Source of the DNA: Fusobacteria bacterium ZRK30
GTDB lineage: Bacteria; Fusobacteriota; Fusobacteriia; Fusobacteriales; Fusobacteriaceae
Length of the DNA: 64,000 bases
NCBI GenBank assembly: GCA_024628785.1
Contig: CP102405.1
Location: forward strand, 1,674,001-1,738,000
Direction of reading: 5' to 3'
Part shown: positions 27,840 through 50,754 of the stretch, piece after piece
How positions within the stretch are numbered: the first letter of the stretch is position 1
Layout of the letters: every line of letters starts with the position of its first letter
Program-made: the position numbers and the translations under genes
The notes under the pieces: generated by a model
What the model saw: only the letters and a program-made list of their open reading frames with translations
Told to the model about the DNA's origin: nothing
Databases searched by the model: none

Positions 27840-27895
27840 AGGTTAAAGAACTCCCCTAATAACTTAGTAGAATTCACCATATACTTAATTTTTTC

Positions 27896-27963
27896 ACTCA
27901 TAGTAGGTCGTTTACGGTGACCTGTAGAGACGCTCCTCCTTATTAAGAGCATATACGAGTTAA
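27896..27963 (-). promoter_or_regulatory. Purine (guanine-type) riboswitch aptamer
   Basis: On the minus strand: P1 ACUCGUAUA/UACUAUGAGU, P2 GCUCUU/AGGAGC with loop AAUAAGG, J2/3 UCUCUAC, and P3 AGGUC/GACCU with loop ACCGUAAAC. The CCGUAAA loop pairing with the GG of the P2 loop is the hallmark of the class. The base that decides specificity (position 74) is C, which means guanine or hypoxanthine rather than adenine. J2/3 has UCUC where UUUC is usual, a change at an exposed position. It is followed by a terminator and the permease gene. Confidence 0.92.
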
Positions 27964-28011
27964 TTTATGTGGTTATAATACGATATTTATATGACAATGT
28001 CAAGAAGAATA

Positions 28012-44644: not shown

Positions 44645-45262
44645 TTAATCTATCAATCCTTTTAAATTATTTTCAAAAAATCTTTTGAATCCATCTTCCA
44701 TCTTGTCCTTATTTTTGGATTCATCCTCTATTTCTAAGTAATATCTCCCACTTTTAACCTCTTTAGACAGTGAGTCTATTGGGAACCCTGATAATCTTTT
44801 TTTATATGGCTTCTCTGAGATTATAAATTCCTCCGATGATATTTCAATTCCCTGATAACTAAATTCCGTTTCTTCATCTAAAATTAAATAAATAGCATTC
44901 TCATACCATCCTGTAATTTCTCCCCCATTTTTTCTGGCAATTTCAGAATAATGCTCAATCATCTCATCATCTGAAAGTTCTTTCCCGCCTACCCTTCTGA
45001 CATTTACCCCGGGCTGGTCTTCACTTTTTAAACCTTCTAAATACAATCCTGTATCACAGGCAAAAACAGGAATTTTAAATTCTTTAAAATATCCTCTGGC
45101 TTTTTTTTCTGCATTCTCCAAGGGAGTTTTCCCATCTTCTATTATTTTTATCGATGTTTCCCCTGCCTCCTTCAGTCCAATTATCTCAATCCCCAACTCT
45201 TTAATCATCTCTTTCATATGATTAATTTTTGAACCATTGGTTGTTCCATAAAGTATTTTCAT
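44645..45262 (-). CDS. Ham1/RdgB-family nucleoside-triphosphate pyrophosphatase
   Basis: It probably removes non-canonical purine nucleotides (ITP, XTP). It has 205 residues. The N-terminus MKILYGTTNGSKINHMKEM has the T-x-N-x-x-K pattern, PLENAEKKARGYF matches the family's E-N-A-x-x-K-A, and PVFACDTGLYLEGL its D-(S/T)-G-L. The centre (DQPGVNVRRVGG) is the 'P-G-V-x-x-x-R' motif. The middle of the protein is more diverged than in typical RdgB, so substrate range is unsure. It is followed by a dispersed repeat. Confidence 0.8.
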   Translation of the reverse strand: MKILYGTTNGSKINHMKEMIKELGIEIIGLKEAGETSIKIIEDGKTPLENAEKKARGYFKEFKIPVFACDTGLYLEGLKSEDQPGVNVRRVGGKELSDDEMIEHYSEIARKNGGEITGWYENAIYLILDEETEFSYQGIEISSEEFIISEKPYKKRLSGFPIDSLSKEVKSGRYYLEIEDESKNKDKMEDGFKRFFENNLKGLID

Positions 45263-45288
45263 CTTTCCCCCATAGTTTTAATATATTT

Positions 45289-46095
45289 TTATTTTTTTAC
45301 AACTATAACCATATGTTCAGTAGCATCTCTGTATTGCGGTTTCTCACAATATTCAGCTGCCGCTTTAATATAATTATTGTAAAGATCCTTTGATTTTTCT
45401 TTGACTTTTTCAATTTCAAGATTCATTCCAGAGATAAAACTCTCTGCACCGGCATAGGAAAGAATTTCAAAATTTGATTTTTGCATCTCCTTAATTGCCT
45501 GTGGCGGCGTAGTAAAGTGTACCGTTGTAAAAGCGTTTTTACTGTCTAATTTTAAATCTCCATCCAGCATCAATTTAAAATTATCTTTATCATGAAAACT
45601 ATCTGACAATTCATACAAACTTGATTTTAAAGTCCCCCAGGTATTTATATATGCAAATATAGCAATTCCATCTTTTTTCAAAATCCGATGAACGTTATTT
45701 TGAATTTTTATCCTATCACTTTCCTCATGGATGTGGTACATGGGTCCTAAAACCAAAATTGAATCGAAGTGGTCATCTACAAACCGATCTAGATCTAAAG
45801 CACAGCTGCAATAAAACCCATTGGAAGTGAGCCCATGATTTTCAAATTGATCTTTCGCTATATCTAATTCTGCCTGTGAAAGATCGAGAAGGGTCATATT
45901 ATATCCTAGCTTTGCAAGTTCAACTGAATACCGTCCGGGACCCGATCCGATATCTAAAATATTTCCCCTGTCAGGAAAATACTTTCTTATTAAAAACATA
46001 GTACTTTCAAATTCCACAAGGCTGTACGGGTTATTTAACCTTTCTAACTCATGAACAGCTATTTTATCATAATATTCTGTAACTTCATTTTTCAT
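45289..46095 (-). CDS. SAM-dependent methyltransferase
   Basis: A 268-residue class I methyltransferase. Motif I is NILDIGSGPGRYSVELAKLG with the acidic loop LLDLSQAELD; the 'post-I' segment DSILVLGPMYHIHEESDR and FAYINTWG are also as in the family. The acceptor cannot be identified. The gene starts 27 bp upstream of the Ham1-like gene, and both may be cotranscribed. Confidence 0.85.
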   Translation of the reverse strand: MKNEVTEYYDKIAVHELERLNNPYSLVEFESTMFLIRKYFPDRGNILDIGSGPGRYSVELAKLGYNMTLLDLSQAELDIAKDQFENHGLTSNGFYCSCALDLDRFVDDHFDSILVLGPMYHIHEESDRIKIQNNVHRILKKDGIAIFAYINTWGTLKSSLYELSDSFHDKDNFKLMLDGDLKLDSKNAFTTVHFTTPPQAIKEMQKSNFEILSYAGAESFISGMNLEIEKVKEKSKDLYNNYIKAAAEYCEKPQYRDATEHMVIVVKK

Positions 46096-46339
46096 CTTCT
46101 TCCCCCTTAATTTTCTCTTTATTGATCTGTCTAAATTAAAATATCATATATAAGAATTTTATTATTTTAAAATTTATTAGAGTATACTACATAAAAAGTA
46201 AACTTTATCTTTTTTTATTTAAATATATTAAAAGGAATTTTTCTTTTTCTTTATATAATCTATTTATAAAATTTATTTTATGCGAAGTATAGTTCTATAG
46301 TAAAATTTATCGTTTTATAATTTTTTCCCGGGAGGCTTT

Positions 46340-46786
46340 ATGAGCAAATTATTATTATTCCCTGTTATACAATCAGATAAAAATAAACTTGATCAGGCAT
46401 ATGAAGTTGCCCAAGACTTTAAGGCTGTATATGAAGGTAAAGACATTTGGGTCCCCCAGTTTTTTCAATATGATGGAGCCAGCATCCCGTCTCTGGCATG
46501 GCAGGTAATTGGTACTCCCTTTAACCCTCATTTTATGGAAGCAGCCGTTATACATGACTGGCTTTATCACACCCACCAGCTGGATAAAAAAGACGCAGAT
46601 AAATTATTTTATAGAATTCTCTTGGAAAATAAAGTTGATCCTGTAAAAGCTGTTTTAATCCGTGAAGCAGTAGAAAAATTTGGTAACTGGTATTGGATAA
46701 ATGACGAGGAAGACTCTAAATATATTCAAAAATTAAAAAACAAAATAATTCAAATTGGCAAAGACCCTTCAAAGTATGGAATATAA
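46340..46786 (+). CDS. DUF1353 protein
   Basis: A 148-residue protein of the DUF1353 family. The conserved core is VPQFFQYDGASIPSLAWQVI, followed by AAVIHDWLYHTHQLDKKDAD, in which the invariant H-D-x-L-Y pattern probably binds a metal. Members are common in phages and bacteria and their role is unknown. A GGGAGG site (46329) precedes the ATG. No phage genes are nearby. Confidence 0.85.
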   Translation: MSKLLLFPVIQSDKNKLDQAYEVAQDFKAVYEGKDIWVPQFFQYDGASIPSLAWQVIGTPFNPHFMEAAVIHDWLYHTHQLDKKDADKLFYRILLENKVDPVKAVLIREAVEKFGNWYWINDEEDSKYIQKLKNKIIQIGKDPSKYGI

Positions 46787-46792
46787 TCTATT

Positions 46793-46836
46793 AAAAAATA
46801 AAGGAAGGTATTTACTATCTCCCTTTATTTTTATTT
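46793..46836. terminator. Bidirectional terminator
   Basis: AAATAAAGG / CCTTTATTT hairpin with A and T flanks between convergent genes. Confidence 0.75.
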
Positions 46837-48000
46837 AATCATGATTTAAAGCTTCTACGACCTCTAACTTCGCCCCTCTGTATGCTGGAAATATACTGGA
46901 CAAAAATATAATTATAACATTCGCTCCTATTATTAGAAGCACCTCTTTAAATTTTATTTCCACAGGAATTTTACTTAGGTTATAAATACTGGTTATTTCA
47001 TTTATATTATAATTTTTTAGATACCATAATATTATACCTGAAACACTTAATCCAATAACTATCCCTAGTATCCCTAAAAATAAGCCTTCTATAATAAATA
47101 TTCTCATTATATTTTTACCGGAAAACCCCATAGATCTCATTATTCCTATATCTTTTATTTTTTCTTTGACAGACATACTCAATATTACCCAGATTAAAAA
47201 TCCCGCTATTATAACTATCAGGGAAAATACAACAACCATTCCACTTTTCTGTAGAGATAACGATGCCAATAAATTTCTGTTTAGATCTTTCCATGTTCTG
47301 GTAGAAAGACCTGTTTGTTCTGGGATCTGTAATGCTGTTTTATCTGCACTGTATATATCGTCTAAAAACACCTCTAAATCTGTTACTGAATCTCCTCCAT
47401 AGGTTAAGATTTGAACTGCTCTTAGAGGACTATTATGATAGTTTTATCGTATTCCTCATAACCTGATTGGTATACTCCAACTATGGTCAGAGTTACCTGA
47501 ATATTTTTAGAAGTAACTACGCTTACCTCATCCCCTAATTCTGCACCTAAGTCGTCAAAAAGTTTCTTTCCCATGAGAAATTCTGTGGGAGTTTTAGCAT
47601 CCATAGTTCCGTAAACTACTTTTTCATTCAAACCCATGGTTTTTCTGGCTTCATGAAAATCCAGACCATTTATCCTTACCCCTGTTACATATGACCCGTG
47701 AGTTTGATTATATTTTAATATTCCCTGTTCTGTACTTTGAGGAATTACTCCTTTTACTCCCCTTATTTTTTCTATTTTTGATTGTAACTCCCTGTAATTT
47801 TCTATGGATTTTCCATTTTTTGTGACTATTATATGGGAAGTCATTGAAAAGATACTTTCCATCATACTTCTATCCAGCCCATTGGATATCCCAAGGGAAA
47901 CTATCAATACTGTGATTCCTATCGCTACCCCAAACATTGCTACTACACTCTGTCTTTTTCTTTCAAAAATATGTTTTTTTGCTATAAAAAATTCTATCAT
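46835..48000 (-). pseudogene. ABC permease (LolC/MacB-like), split by frameshift
   Basis: One gene is read in two frames. The N-terminal half begins IEFFIAKKHIFERKRQSVVA and has the first membrane segment (FGVAIGITVLIVSLG) plus the extracytoplasmic domain (MTSHIIVTKNG, LGAELGDEVSVV). It breaks after KTIIIV by a one-base shift at about 47425-47440. The other frame continues PLRAVQILTYGGDSVTDLEV and has the three C-terminal segments (FSLIVIIAGFLIWVILSMSV, and so on) and the end PAYRGAKLEVVEAL. Both halves together give the full FtsX/LolE-type length. It is either a fresh pseudogene or a sequencing error. No partner ATPase lies next to it. Confidence 0.8.
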
Positions 48001-48482
48001 ATTTCAACCTCTATTCTTCTTATATATAGTTGATCTGGTTATTAGTAAAATATATTATTTATAATTTTTTTAGTTATTCCTTATCTTAGTCACTTCTATT
48101 ATTCATGAATTATGATCGACTCCCATAATTCCAGTATCAAAACTATTAATACTATCTCTTCTCAAAAAAATTATTCCCTGTATAGTTTATACAACACTTC
48201 ACAATTAAATTCAATTTTATTTAATTTTAACTTTTTTTTAACAAAATATAGGAGAAATAGAATTATAGACCTCCTAACAAAATATATTTTTATAATAGTT
48301 ATATAAATCCAGATGTTTTTTTCACATAACTTAAAAAAAATACTTTCCTCAGTTTTAAACTATTCCAATTTTCAAACTTTTTTAACTTTTTCTTAATAAT
48401 TTTTAATTCAATTTTAATTTAAATTATGTTAAGATTAATTGTCAACACAATTGCAGTAAAATATATTATTGAGGAGGATTTA
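48001..48482. other. AT-rich gap between permease and RAMP gene
   Basis: No gene is seen. TAGGAG / CTCCTA at about 48250-48277 may form a hairpin. The last 60 bases carry the RAMP gene's promoter region and the ribosome site GAGGAGG (48473-48479). Long T- and A-tracts dominate. Confidence 0.4.
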
Positions 48483-49163
48483 ATGGATTTTAGCAAATTT
48501 CAGAACAAATATATAATAGAAGGAACTTTATCAGTCTATTCCTTACACATTGGAAAATATAGAACAGAGGAAAATTTTGATTCTCCTACTATAAAATATT
48601 TAAATAACATAGCATATATTCCCGGGTCAAACTTTAGGGACCGTTTTCAATATAAATTAAAAACTTTAGTAAATTTAGGACTTACCCTTGAAGACAGAAA
48701 ATTACATGTTTTAGATATCAAGGAAATCTTTGGAAATATCAGTACAAGAAAAAACTTTAACAATGTTGGAGGGAAGATCTATATAGAGGATCTTGTTATA
48801 GAACCAAATAAAAAAAATTCTACCTATAGTGATATAACCATAAACAAACATACAGGAATAGCGAGAAAAAGTAATAAATTTGATTATAATACCATTGAAA
48901 ATTCAACTTTTAAATTAAATATTATTTTAGAAAATTTACAAGATTATGAGATAGATCTAATAAATATAGGATTAAATCTTATGAAAGATGATATGTTCGG
49001 GCAAAAAACAACCGGGCAAATCGGAAGGTGTAAATTAAATATTGACAGGGTAAAGTATATAACTAAAGATACTTTAAATGATTATTTATTCCACGGTAAA
49101 ATGAAAGTCGGAACCCAGGAAATTCTAAATAAGGGTAAAGTAATTCTGAATATGGAAAAGTAA
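48483..49163 (+). CDS. Solitary Csm3/Cas7-like RAMP protein
   Basis: A 226-residue protein of the RAMP superfamily, closest in layout to Csm3, the backbone and target-RNA nuclease of type III CRISPR effectors. The start at 48483 has GAGGAGG. Csm3-type marks in order: EGTLSVYSLHIGK (first strand), FDSPTIKY with Asp33 in the place of the catalytic Asp of Csm3, AYIPGSNFRDRF (IPGSS-x-(K/R) motif), HTGIARKSNKFDYNTIE, and ILENLQDYEIDLINIGLNLM followed by TGQIGRCKLN (the G-rich loop). No other cas gene and no CRISPR array lie in the window. A c-di-GMP riboswitch and structured RNA follow directly. The family is well supported; function outside a complex is unknown. Confidence 0.8.
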   Translation: MDFSKFQNKYIIEGTLSVYSLHIGKYRTEENFDSPTIKYLNNIAYIPGSNFRDRFQYKLKTLVNLGLTLEDRKLHVLDIKEIFGNISTRKNFNNVGGKIYIEDLVIEPNKKNSTYSDITINKHTGIARKSNKFDYNTIENSTFKLNIILENLQDYEIDLINIGLNLMKDDMFGQKTTGQIGRCKLNIDRVKYITKDTLNDYLFHGKMKVGTQEILNKGKVILNMEK

Positions 49164-49221
49164 ATTCAAAAAATTGACATGAGACATTAGTAGTACTCCA
49201 TTCTAAAGAGATAACTAAAAA

Positions 49222-49314
49222 CAACATGAAATATTGGCAAAGCAGGGGAAATCCTGTGACGCAAAGCTATAGGACCTTTAAAATGGTAGCCAGTTGCAGA
49301 TCTTTCGAGACCTG
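49222..49314 (+). promoter_or_regulatory. c-di-GMP-I (GEMM) riboswitch
   Basis: The conserved elements are in order: TTGGCAAAGC, P2 stem CAGG/CCTG with GGAAA tetraloop contacts (GCAGGGGAAATCCTGTG), the invariant GACGCAAAGCTATAGG, and P3/J end ATGGTAGCCAGTTGC. The base before GCAAA that decides ligand choice is G, as in c-di-GMP rather than cAMP-GMP sensing versions. It starts 60 bp after the RAMP gene stop. No gene begins within 300 bp behind it, so the regulated target is unclear. Confidence 0.85.
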
Positions 49315-49344
49315 TATTTTTTTTTGTATTAATATAGGAAAAAT

Positions 49345-49445
49345 GTAAAAGCTCAGACTGAGCTTTTACAAAATTTATTCTACTAAGAGCGATATACAAA
49401 TTAAGTTCCACAACGTAGTGAGGACTACAGCCCAAAAGCTCGTGG
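49345..49445 (+). ncRNA. Structured RNA with pseudoknot behind the riboswitch
   Basis: A perfect hairpin GTAAAAGCTCA/TGAGCTTTTAC (49345-49369) is followed by a compact fold: GAGC (49387) pairs with GCTC (49438), and CCAC (49408) pairs with GTGG (49442) across it, an H-type pseudoknot. Inside is GTAGT-GAGG-ACTAC (49415-49428). The region codes for nothing convincing. It may be the riboswitch's expression platform or an independent small RNA. Guide-RNA ends of IS605-type elements can look similar, but no transposase is near. Confidence 0.5.
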
Positions 49446-49564
49446 TTATTTTATCTCTACTTAGGAGCTATTTACAAAATTTGAGTTTTTCTTTTTCAGA
49501 CTCACATTTAAAATTAAATTTAGTTACATTTAATTTTAATAATCGTGAATCGTAAACAGGGTCC

Positions 49565-49607
49565 GTTAAGGGAGAAACCCTTAGATTTTAATTTTTTTTA
49601 TTTTTCC
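49565..49607 (+). terminator. Terminator of the riboswitch RNA
   Basis: TTAAGGG-agaaa-CCCTTA then a T-rich tail with eight T. It ends the transcript about 340 bases after the riboswitch begins, just before the next gene. Confidence 0.75.
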
Positions 49608-49632
49608 CTTATTCATATTTATAGAGGAATAC

Positions 49633-49896
49633 ATTTCAAAATTTGTGGTAACCAACAAAGGCACAATAATCAGAAGCGCTGTCAAATCAGAAATATATGA
49701 TAAAGCCTTCTGTATAGATAAATTTTATTATTCTGAAATAAAAGGAATAGGATGGTCTGATTTTAGATTTAAGCCACATATGAAAATCAAAATAACAAAT
49801 AAAAAATATCACTGCAAAGTTTATCCCTTTGGGCTCGGCATTAAAGAAAAAGAAGCCAAATTACTGACACAAATGATTGAAAATAAATTAAAATAA
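49633..49896 (+). CDS. Small protein, unknown, possible ATT start
   Basis: The only clear initiation codon in frame is GTG at 49645 (83 residues), but it lacks a ribosome site at the right distance. AGAGGAA at 49623-49629 is well placed for an ATT at 49633, which would give 87 residues starting (I)SKFVVTNKGTII. The product is mixed beta/alpha and basic: IRSAVKSEIYDKAF, YSEIKGIGWSDFRFKPHMKI, ending EAKLLTQMIENKLK. No family is recognised. It is the first gene after the c-di-GMP riboswitch RNA and its terminator, so it is a candidate target. Confidence 0.55.
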   Translation: MSKFVVTNKGTIIRSAVKSEIYDKAFCIDKFYYSEIKGIGWSDFRFKPHMKIKITNKKYHCKVYPFGLGIKEKEAKLLTQMIENKLK

Positions 49897-50250
49897 AGGA
49901 AAATTGTAAAACAATTTGAAATTAATTTACATAGAAGTAAAAACAGCTGGGGAGGAAGGGGTGGATAAATCTCGTGGATCCCAGAGGATGGTTTCAATGG
50001 TATTGCAGATATTATTATAGGAAAAGGAGGACAGAGGACAAATTAAACGGGGGAAGGCTATGAAAAAACACCTAGGAGCAGTTCTATAGACCTTGACTGC
50101 AGAGTAAAACAGAGACAAGCACTCCTACATCAGGCTTATGACAGCAGAAAGATCTAAAGTTCAAAAACTAATCTCTCTAGAAAAATTAAGGACTCTGGAA
50201 ATAAGTTAATTCATCAAAAAATTTATAACAGCTAAAAAAAGGAGCCGATT
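49897..50250. other. Gap with possible decayed ORF
   Basis: GC is a little higher than around it. Short open stretches such as TAERSKVQKLISLEKLRTLE (about 50133-50205, plus strand) and ribosome-site-like GGGGGAAGGCTATG (about 50049) are followed by early stops. It could be a decayed gene; nothing intact is seen. Confidence 0.35.
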
Positions 50251-50754
50251 ATGAAGGATTTAATGCCACTCTTTGAAATGGATAAAATTATTAACATACT
50301 TACCAAAATCTCTATCTTTGGAGGTCTTAACGATACTCAGCTCTATAAAATTTTTAAGATATTAAAAAAAGTAACATATAAAGATAACGAGTTTATTTTT
50401 AAACAAGGTGAAGCACCTACTTATATCTATATAATACTCAGAGGAAAAATAAGACTGATTGAAGATATAAACTATAGCAGTTACCAGCTCTTTGAATTTG
50501 CAGAGGGAAGTTGTATTGGTGAAGAATCCGTAATTGGAATTCAACCACACACACTATCTGCAGTAGCTGTAGGAGATATAGAGTTAGCTGTGATTCCTAA
50601 AAACTCATTTTTAAATTTCTATCACACTGATAAGGATCTTTTTTGTCTATTAATCCTAAACATAGCCAGAGATATTTCTCGCAGACTTAAACAGACAGAC
50701 GACCTTCTTCTCCATTATATAGATAAAACAGATAAAGTATCCCAATCTGATTAA
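50251..50754 (+). CDS. Stand-alone cyclic-nucleotide-binding domain protein, paralogue
   Basis: A 167-residue protein with one CRP-type barrel: KISIFGGLNDTQLYKIFKIL, then YKDNEFIFKQGEAPTYIYII, LRGKIRLI, FAEGSCIGEESVIG, and ending in NIARDISRRLKQTDDLLLHY with no DNA-binding domain. It has the same architecture as the gene at 35447, and the tail NIARDISRR matches NVARESCRR there. The Arg of the cAMP phosphate cassette is missing. Two such proteins in one window suggest a small local family with a protein target. Confidence 0.8.
   Translation: MKDLMPLFEMDKIINILTKISIFGGLNDTQLYKIFKILKKVTYKDNEFIFKQGEAPTYIYIILRGKIRLIEDINYSSYQLFEFAEGSCIGEESVIGIQPHTLSAVAVGDIELAVIPKNSFLNFYHTDKDLFCLLILNIARDISRRLKQTDDLLLHYIDKTDKVSQSD

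What the first reader, a model, noticed from the sequence alone, without database searches (positions are those of the whole stretch)
49222..49314. c-di-GMP-I riboswitch with no gene directly behind it
All diagnostic motifs are present, but the transcript meets a hairpin, a pseudoknot and a terminator before any gene. It may control the small gene at 49633 over a long leader, or the product may itself be a ligand-sensing small RNA.
Basis: partly seen in the sequence, partly recalled or inferred. Interest (0 to 1): 0.65.

Follow-up and report, generated by a model that had tools for sequence, protein, structure and literature searches.

The report
Orphaned c-di-GMP riboswitch, target gene decayed
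A genuine cyclic-di-GMP-sensing RNA switch sits in front of broken gene remnants and a scattered intergenic repeat rather than a working gene, so it is most likely a leftover switch that lost its gene, although its sequence is still well preserved in a sister species.

Summary
The riboswitch is real: Rfam c-di-GMP-I scores 59.7 bits (cut-off 35) at window 49226-49301, one of ten in this genome. It is a short subtype shared by 16 riboswitches in the genus. In that subtype the aptamer's 3' end also forms the 5' arm of an intrinsic terminator (49295-49325), so ligand probably prevents termination.

What follows is not a regulated gene. The hairpin/pseudoknot/terminator stretch (49341-49603) is a rearranged copy of a dispersed intergenic structured repeat found in several Fusobacteriaceae. 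The "small gene at 49633" is the C-terminal ~100 codons of a membrane protein ("GTNG" family) with an in-frame stop just upstream and no proper start. Behind it lie frameshifted remnants of a gene that is intact in a sister species. The only full-length GTNG genes in 61 family genomes lie behind the same riboswitch subtype in one congener, and one of those switches is the orphan's closest relative (2 of 62 differences).

Best reading: a switch orphaned by gene decay, with a weakened terminator. A trans-acting c-di-GMP-sensing sRNA is not excluded, because the element changed far less than neighbouring third codon positions between species. Ordinary in kind; moderate interest.

The parts
48483..49163 (+). 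Stand-alone RAMP (Csm3/Cas7-like) gene, 226 aa, ending 62 bases before the aptamer match; conserved in the sister species at the same place
   Evidence: Pfam RAMPs 3.5e-8; PADLOC Csm3 2e-16; orthologue in G007, 90% identity
49226..49301 (+). c-di-GMP-I riboswitch aptamer (short-P3 subtype)
   Evidence: cmscan RF01051, 59.7 bits, gathering score 35
49295..49325 (+). Intrinsic terminator T1 (UGCAGAUCU-UUCG-AGACCUGUA plus U9) that re-uses the aptamer 3' end; carries an A.C mismatch shared with the sister-species orthologue
   Evidence: RNAfold -5.1 kcal/mol against -9.2 to -11.8 for the 14 others; alignment A6
49344..49370 (.). Perfect 12-bp palindrome occupying the place of the normal 5' arm of the repeat; its strongest U tail is on the minus strand
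49341..49486 (+). Copy of a dispersed ~143-nt structured intergenic repeat, 5' arm replaced
   Evidence: covariance model R1, 123.7 bits; alignments A1 and A2
49502..49556 (.). Second short dispersed repeat nested in the first one's 3' module
   Evidence: multiple 82-94% matches in G000, G002, G005, G007
49566..49600 (+). Terminator-like hairpin T2 with U-rich tail, 3' module of the repeat
   Evidence: pattern scan; RNAfold -7.2 kcal/mol; covarying bases in other copies
49585..49896 (+). 5'-truncated remnant of a 'GTNG' family membrane-protein gene; only usable start is GTG at 49645
   Evidence: tblastn 39-41% identity to residues 76-176 of full-length homologues, E 9e-18; frame check
49941..50154 (+). 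Frameshifted remnant of a gene that is intact (167 aa) in the sister species downstream of the same riboswitch
   Evidence: tblastn in three frames, combined E 4e-22
50251..50754 (+). Next intact gene: cyclic-nucleotide-binding (CRP-type effector domain) protein, 167 aa
   Evidence: Pfam PF00027 4e-17

Best explanation
This is a genuine c-di-GMP-I riboswitch of a short subtype used in this genus before exopolysaccharide and adhesin genes. Its aptamer 3' end and the 5' arm of an intrinsic terminator are the same bases, so ligand binding should block termination (an ON switch; inferred). Here it has been orphaned. It probably once led a 'GTNG' membrane-protein operon. That gene lost its 5' part and the next gene was broken by frameshifts. 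Dispersed repeat elements now fill the gap, adding a second terminator. The present product is most likely a short terminated RNA of about 100 nt, or a read-through that ends at T2, with no gene to control.
For: Aptamer 59.7 bits. The same subtype, with the terminator overlapping the aptamer, occurs 16 times in the genus, before EPS kinase genes, DUF11/lectin adhesins and others. GTNG homologues occur in only 2 of 61 Fusobacteriaceae genomes: full-length in G002, always within about 5 kb downstream on the same strand of this riboswitch subtype, and as a C-terminal fragment 0.3 kb behind the riboswitch in this genome. The orphan aptamer is closest to the G002 GTNG-linked switch (2 of 62 differences against 5-9 for all other copies except its own orthologue). 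The fragment lacks residues 1-75 and has an in-frame stop upstream. A neighbouring gene remnant is frameshifted here but intact in G007. T1 is weakened by an A.C mismatch (-5.1 against -9.2 to -11.8 kcal/mol). The synteny break with G007 starts right behind T1. Precedent: in Bacillus thuringiensis Bc1, c-di-GMP unfolds T1 but a second terminator T2 masks the response (PMC11218506).
Against: The riboswitch has changed little between this genome and G007: 3 differences in 98 nt, where about 19 would be expected at the third-position rate of the adjacent gene, although neither copy has a gene directly behind it. Vestigial elements should decay. In G002 the intact GTNG operons also have long, repeat-containing leaders, one with a T2-like module, so that layout may be the subtype's normal one. 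No RNA data exist. That the switch once controlled the GTNG gene is inferred from adjacency and aptamer similarity.
Confidence: 0.68

Rival explanations
1. Ligand-sensing small RNA: the terminated ~100-nt aptamer RNA, or its read-through form, acts in trans on mRNAs or sequesters c-di-GMP, so it is kept without a gene behind it.
For: Conserved well beyond neighbouring third codon positions between two species that both lack a gene behind it; compact unit ending in its own terminator; trans action by terminated riboswitch RNAs is reported for Listeria SreA in papers listed.
Against: Only two species carry the locus; loss of the genes could be recent, so conservation may date from when it was linked. 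The terminator is the weakest of the subtype. The orthologue has a G-to-A change at a probable ligand-contact base. No target was sought or found.
Confidence: 0.12
2. Functional long leader: the switch still controls downstream DNA (GTNG fragment, or the cyclic-nucleotide-binding gene at 50251) by read-through, with the repeat as part of the leader.
For: The same three-part layout (switch, repeat module, gene) occurs at intact GTNG operons in G002; T1 is weak here.
Against: T2 intervenes; the ORF is truncated and lacks a proper start; G007 keeps the switch but not this downstream order.
Confidence: 0.12
3. 3'-UTR element of the upstream lone RAMP gene: the switch serves as ligand-dependent terminator or stabiliser of that mRNA.
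For: It lies 62 bases behind the RAMP stop on the same strand in both species; no good promoter match between the two.
Against: The same subtype elsewhere precedes genes and is not linked to RAMP; G004 has the RAMP gene on a contig without this arrangement.
Confidence: 0.08

Closest known systems
c-di-GMP-I (GEMM-I) riboswitch, Rfam RF01051
   Same: Full-length match over the gathering score; GGCAAA, P2 GAAA loop, GACGCAAAGC and GGUAGCC motifs
   Different: Short P3 (CCUUUAAAAUGG), and the aptamer 3' end is itself the terminator 5' arm; no gene directly behind
Bc1 c-di-GMP-I riboswitch of the Bacillus cereus group (PMC11218506)
   Same: Two successive terminators behind the aptamer; the second can mask ligand response
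   Different: Bc1 is followed by intact genes; here the genes are remnants and T2 belongs to a repeat
Listeria SreA/SreB SAM-riboswitch sRNAs
   Same: A terminated riboswitch RNA that could exist as a free small RNA
   Different: No trans target or transcript known here; recalled precedent, not tested
131-bp intergenic repeat of Fusobacterium nucleatum (PMC1924603)
   Same: Dispersed repeat of similar size in intergenic DNA of the same bacterial family
   Different: Sequence identity to the present repeat not tested

Membership tests
c-di-GMP-I riboswitch (RF01051) | Covariance-model score over the curated cut-off | tested here: met
   59.7 bits against 35, full model length
c-di-GMP-I riboswitch (RF01051) | Invariant core motifs and P2 GNRA loop | tested here: met
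   Alignment to the consensus and to 14 genus relatives
c-di-GMP-I riboswitch (RF01051) | Full-length P3 with tetraloop receptor | tested here: inconclusive
   P3 tip is 11 nt shorter than the model in this whole subtype, CCUUUAAAAUGG; functional effect unknown
c-di-GMP-I riboswitch (RF01051) | Binds c-di-GMP | not testable with these tools
   Needs in-line probing or ITC
Cis-regulatory riboswitch with expression platform | Expression platform mutually exclusive with the aptamer | tested here: met
   Terminator 5' arm overlaps the aptamer's last positions in 15 of 15 aligned copies; sequence overlap only, switching itself not measured
Cis-regulatory riboswitch with expression platform | Intact gene under control | tested here: not met
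   Truncated and frameshifted remnants and a repeat
Riboswitch-derived trans-acting sRNA (SreA type) | Free RNA with trans mRNA target | not tested
   No expression data; no target search made

The most novel reading that the evidence does not exclude
The element is kept by selection as a stand-alone c-di-GMP-sensing small RNA acting in trans, the first of its class with that role as far as I know.
Probability: 0.1. Interest if true: 0.72.

Novelty: new member of a known kind. Interest (0 to 1): 0.33.

Why it matters
It is a clean case of a riboswitch outliving the operon it probably served, with an informative sister species. That allows a direct test of whether an orphan riboswitch is mere debris or gains a role as a ligand-sensing RNA. 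It also shows that an annotated riboswitch near an ORF need not regulate it, and that intergenic repeats can bring extra terminators into riboswitch leaders.

Tried and rejected
Group I intron, ribozyme or other known RNA behind the switch: permissive Rfam scans of 49150-50260 and of six intact repeat copies found nothing credible. Repeat as part of a TnpB/IscB or other transposon gene: no transposase next to the copies examined (judged by eye from ORF lists, flanking ORFs were not scanned against Pfam). Exact search for a repeat core in genome contigs: 0 matches. Working type III CRISPR locus with the RAMP gene: no Cas10/Csm1 over the cut-off in three genomes. Organism name: only a Fusobacteriaceae MAG (UBA2433) at 86% NqrF identity was found; the genus is left unnamed. 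The long-leader hypothesis was weakened by the truncated ORF and T2.

Full report
Observation. cmscan places a c-di-GMP-I aptamer at 49226-49301 on the + strand with 59.7 bits (gathering score 35), full length, as the only c-di-GMP aptamer in the window. The sequence shows GGCAAA, a GAAA-capped P2, GACGCAAAGC and GGUAGCC. The genome holds ten such aptamers and its genus relatives up to eleven.

Subtype and expression platform. In 16 of the genus copies the aptamer is 76 nt, with a short P3 tip (CCUUUAAAAUGG), and its last bases (GCAGAU) begin an intrinsic terminator, GCAGAUCU-loop-AGAUCUGU-U7 to U10. The terminator therefore competes with the 3' strand that would close the aptamer, so ligand should favour read-through. 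That direction is inferred, though it agrees with Bc1 of Bacillus thuringiensis, where rising c-di-GMP unfolds T1 (PMC11218506). The window copy's T1 (49295-49325) has an A.C mismatch shared with its G007 orthologue: -5.1 kcal/mol, against -9.2 to -11.8 in the 14 other copies; its U tract of 9 is longer than in most.

What the subtype normally controls. Other copies stand before an exopolysaccharide tyrosine-kinase/chain-length operon, large DUF11/lectin/OmpA surface proteins (including a tandem pair of switches) and other genes, at 90 to about 500 bases (the kinase operon is named from its sequence by eye, not by a family search). The longer subtype of the genus stands before transporter-like sensor and TPR genes (likewise by eye).

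What is behind this copy. (a) 49341-49486 matches a covariance model (R1) built from repeat copies elsewhere in the genus, 123.7 bits. The normal 5' arm (AATTTTGAAGGC) is missing and a perfect palindrome, 49344-49370, sits there. (b) The 3' module of the repeat runs to about 49603, interrupted by another short dispersed repeat (49502-49556), and ends in hairpin T2 with a U-rich tail. (c) From 49585 to 49896 a frame is open without ATG, directly behind an in-frame TAG. Its product aligns at 39-41% identity to residues 76-176 of 176-residue membrane proteins with an N-terminal GTNG motif (E 9e-18). Pfam has no family for them. The apparent ribosome-binding site and start near 49633 are codons of that protein's middle (IEEYISKFVV). 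(d) 49941-50154 holds three frames of a protein that is intact, 167 aa, in G007 (combined E 4e-22). (e) The next intact gene, at 50251, is a cyclic-nucleotide-binding protein.

Where the switch came from. Among 61 genomes of the family only two carry GTNG homologues: this one (fragment) and G002 (full length). All G002 copies lie on the same strand within about 5 kb behind short-subtype switches. The orphan aptamer differs from the G002 C9 GTNG-linked aptamer at 2 of 62 positions, but at 5-9 from every other copy except its own orthologue. The simplest history is that this switch led a GTNG operon that has decayed.

Sister species. G007 is collinear through the RAMP gene, riboswitch and T1 (45176-49337) and again from 51933, and differs between. 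It also has no gene directly behind the switch: the next gene is on the other strand, then the intact homologue of (d). Yet the switch plus terminator differs at only 3 of 98 bases, whereas the adjacent RAMP gene differs at 44 of 227 third positions. The simple Poisson chance of 3 or fewer is about 8e-6; this treats third positions as neutral and is only indicative. Gene-linked switches are similarly conserved (82-100%). So the element was under constraint for much of the time since the split; whether that persisted after gene loss cannot be told from two genomes.

A base of note. The G007 orthologue reads UAGCAAA where the window reads UGGCAAA; in contrast, the 2604-aa-protein switch reads A in this genome and G in G007. 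From memory of the Vc2 numbering this is position 20. A G20A class I aptamer was crystallised with 3',3'-cGAMP (PMC6274999). The mapping is by motif alignment and was not tested structurally.

Mechanism judged most likely. Transcription gives a short aptamer RNA that ends at T1. With ligand, or because T1 is weak, some transcripts pass and end at T2. No intact gene is reached. Shown: aptamer homology, terminator overlap, gene remnants, repeat identity. Inferred: ligand binding, ON direction, former control of GTNG genes, and lack of present function.

Limits. There are no RNA data. The promoter is unclear; no good sigma-70 match lies between the RAMP stop and the aptamer. The G002 operons also have long leaders with repeat modules, so their control by the switch is itself untested.

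Noticed in passing
window 49341-49486; L044:6279-6421, L048:5242-5384, L099, L104, L108-L113: Dispersed ~143-nt structured intergenic repeat across Fusobacteriaceae: 33 copies in G002, 12 in G007, 37 in G011, 30 in G020, 22 in G031, without Rfam match. The core UAAGUUCCGCA-[NN-GNA-NN]-GAGGACUGUAGCU shows compensatory changes (23 cells, 0 of 500 shuffles). Possibly related to the 131-bp repeat of F. nucleatum (PMC1924603), not tested.
   Followed up: partly
L059:10130-10205 (G007 orthologue), L010, L087: Three genus c-di-GMP-I aptamers carry A instead of the first G of GGCAAA, probably Vc2 position 20; orthologous pairs differ G/A in opposite directions, suggesting ligand change (cGAMP) or decay.
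   Followed up: partly
window 48483-49163: Lone Csm3/Cas7-like RAMP gene without recognisable Cas10 over the cut-off in the genome; relatives in G007 and G004.
   Followed up: partly
window 46835-48000: FtsX-like permease split into two ORFs here, a single 388-aa frame in G007: frameshift or pseudogene.
   Followed up: no
L062:7414-7669, L063, L040: Tandem c-di-GMP-I switches, each with its own terminator, before a lectin/DUF11/OmpA surface protein, conserved in three species.
   Followed up: no
window 27881-27978 (-): Purine riboswitch, 68.4 bits.
   Followed up: no
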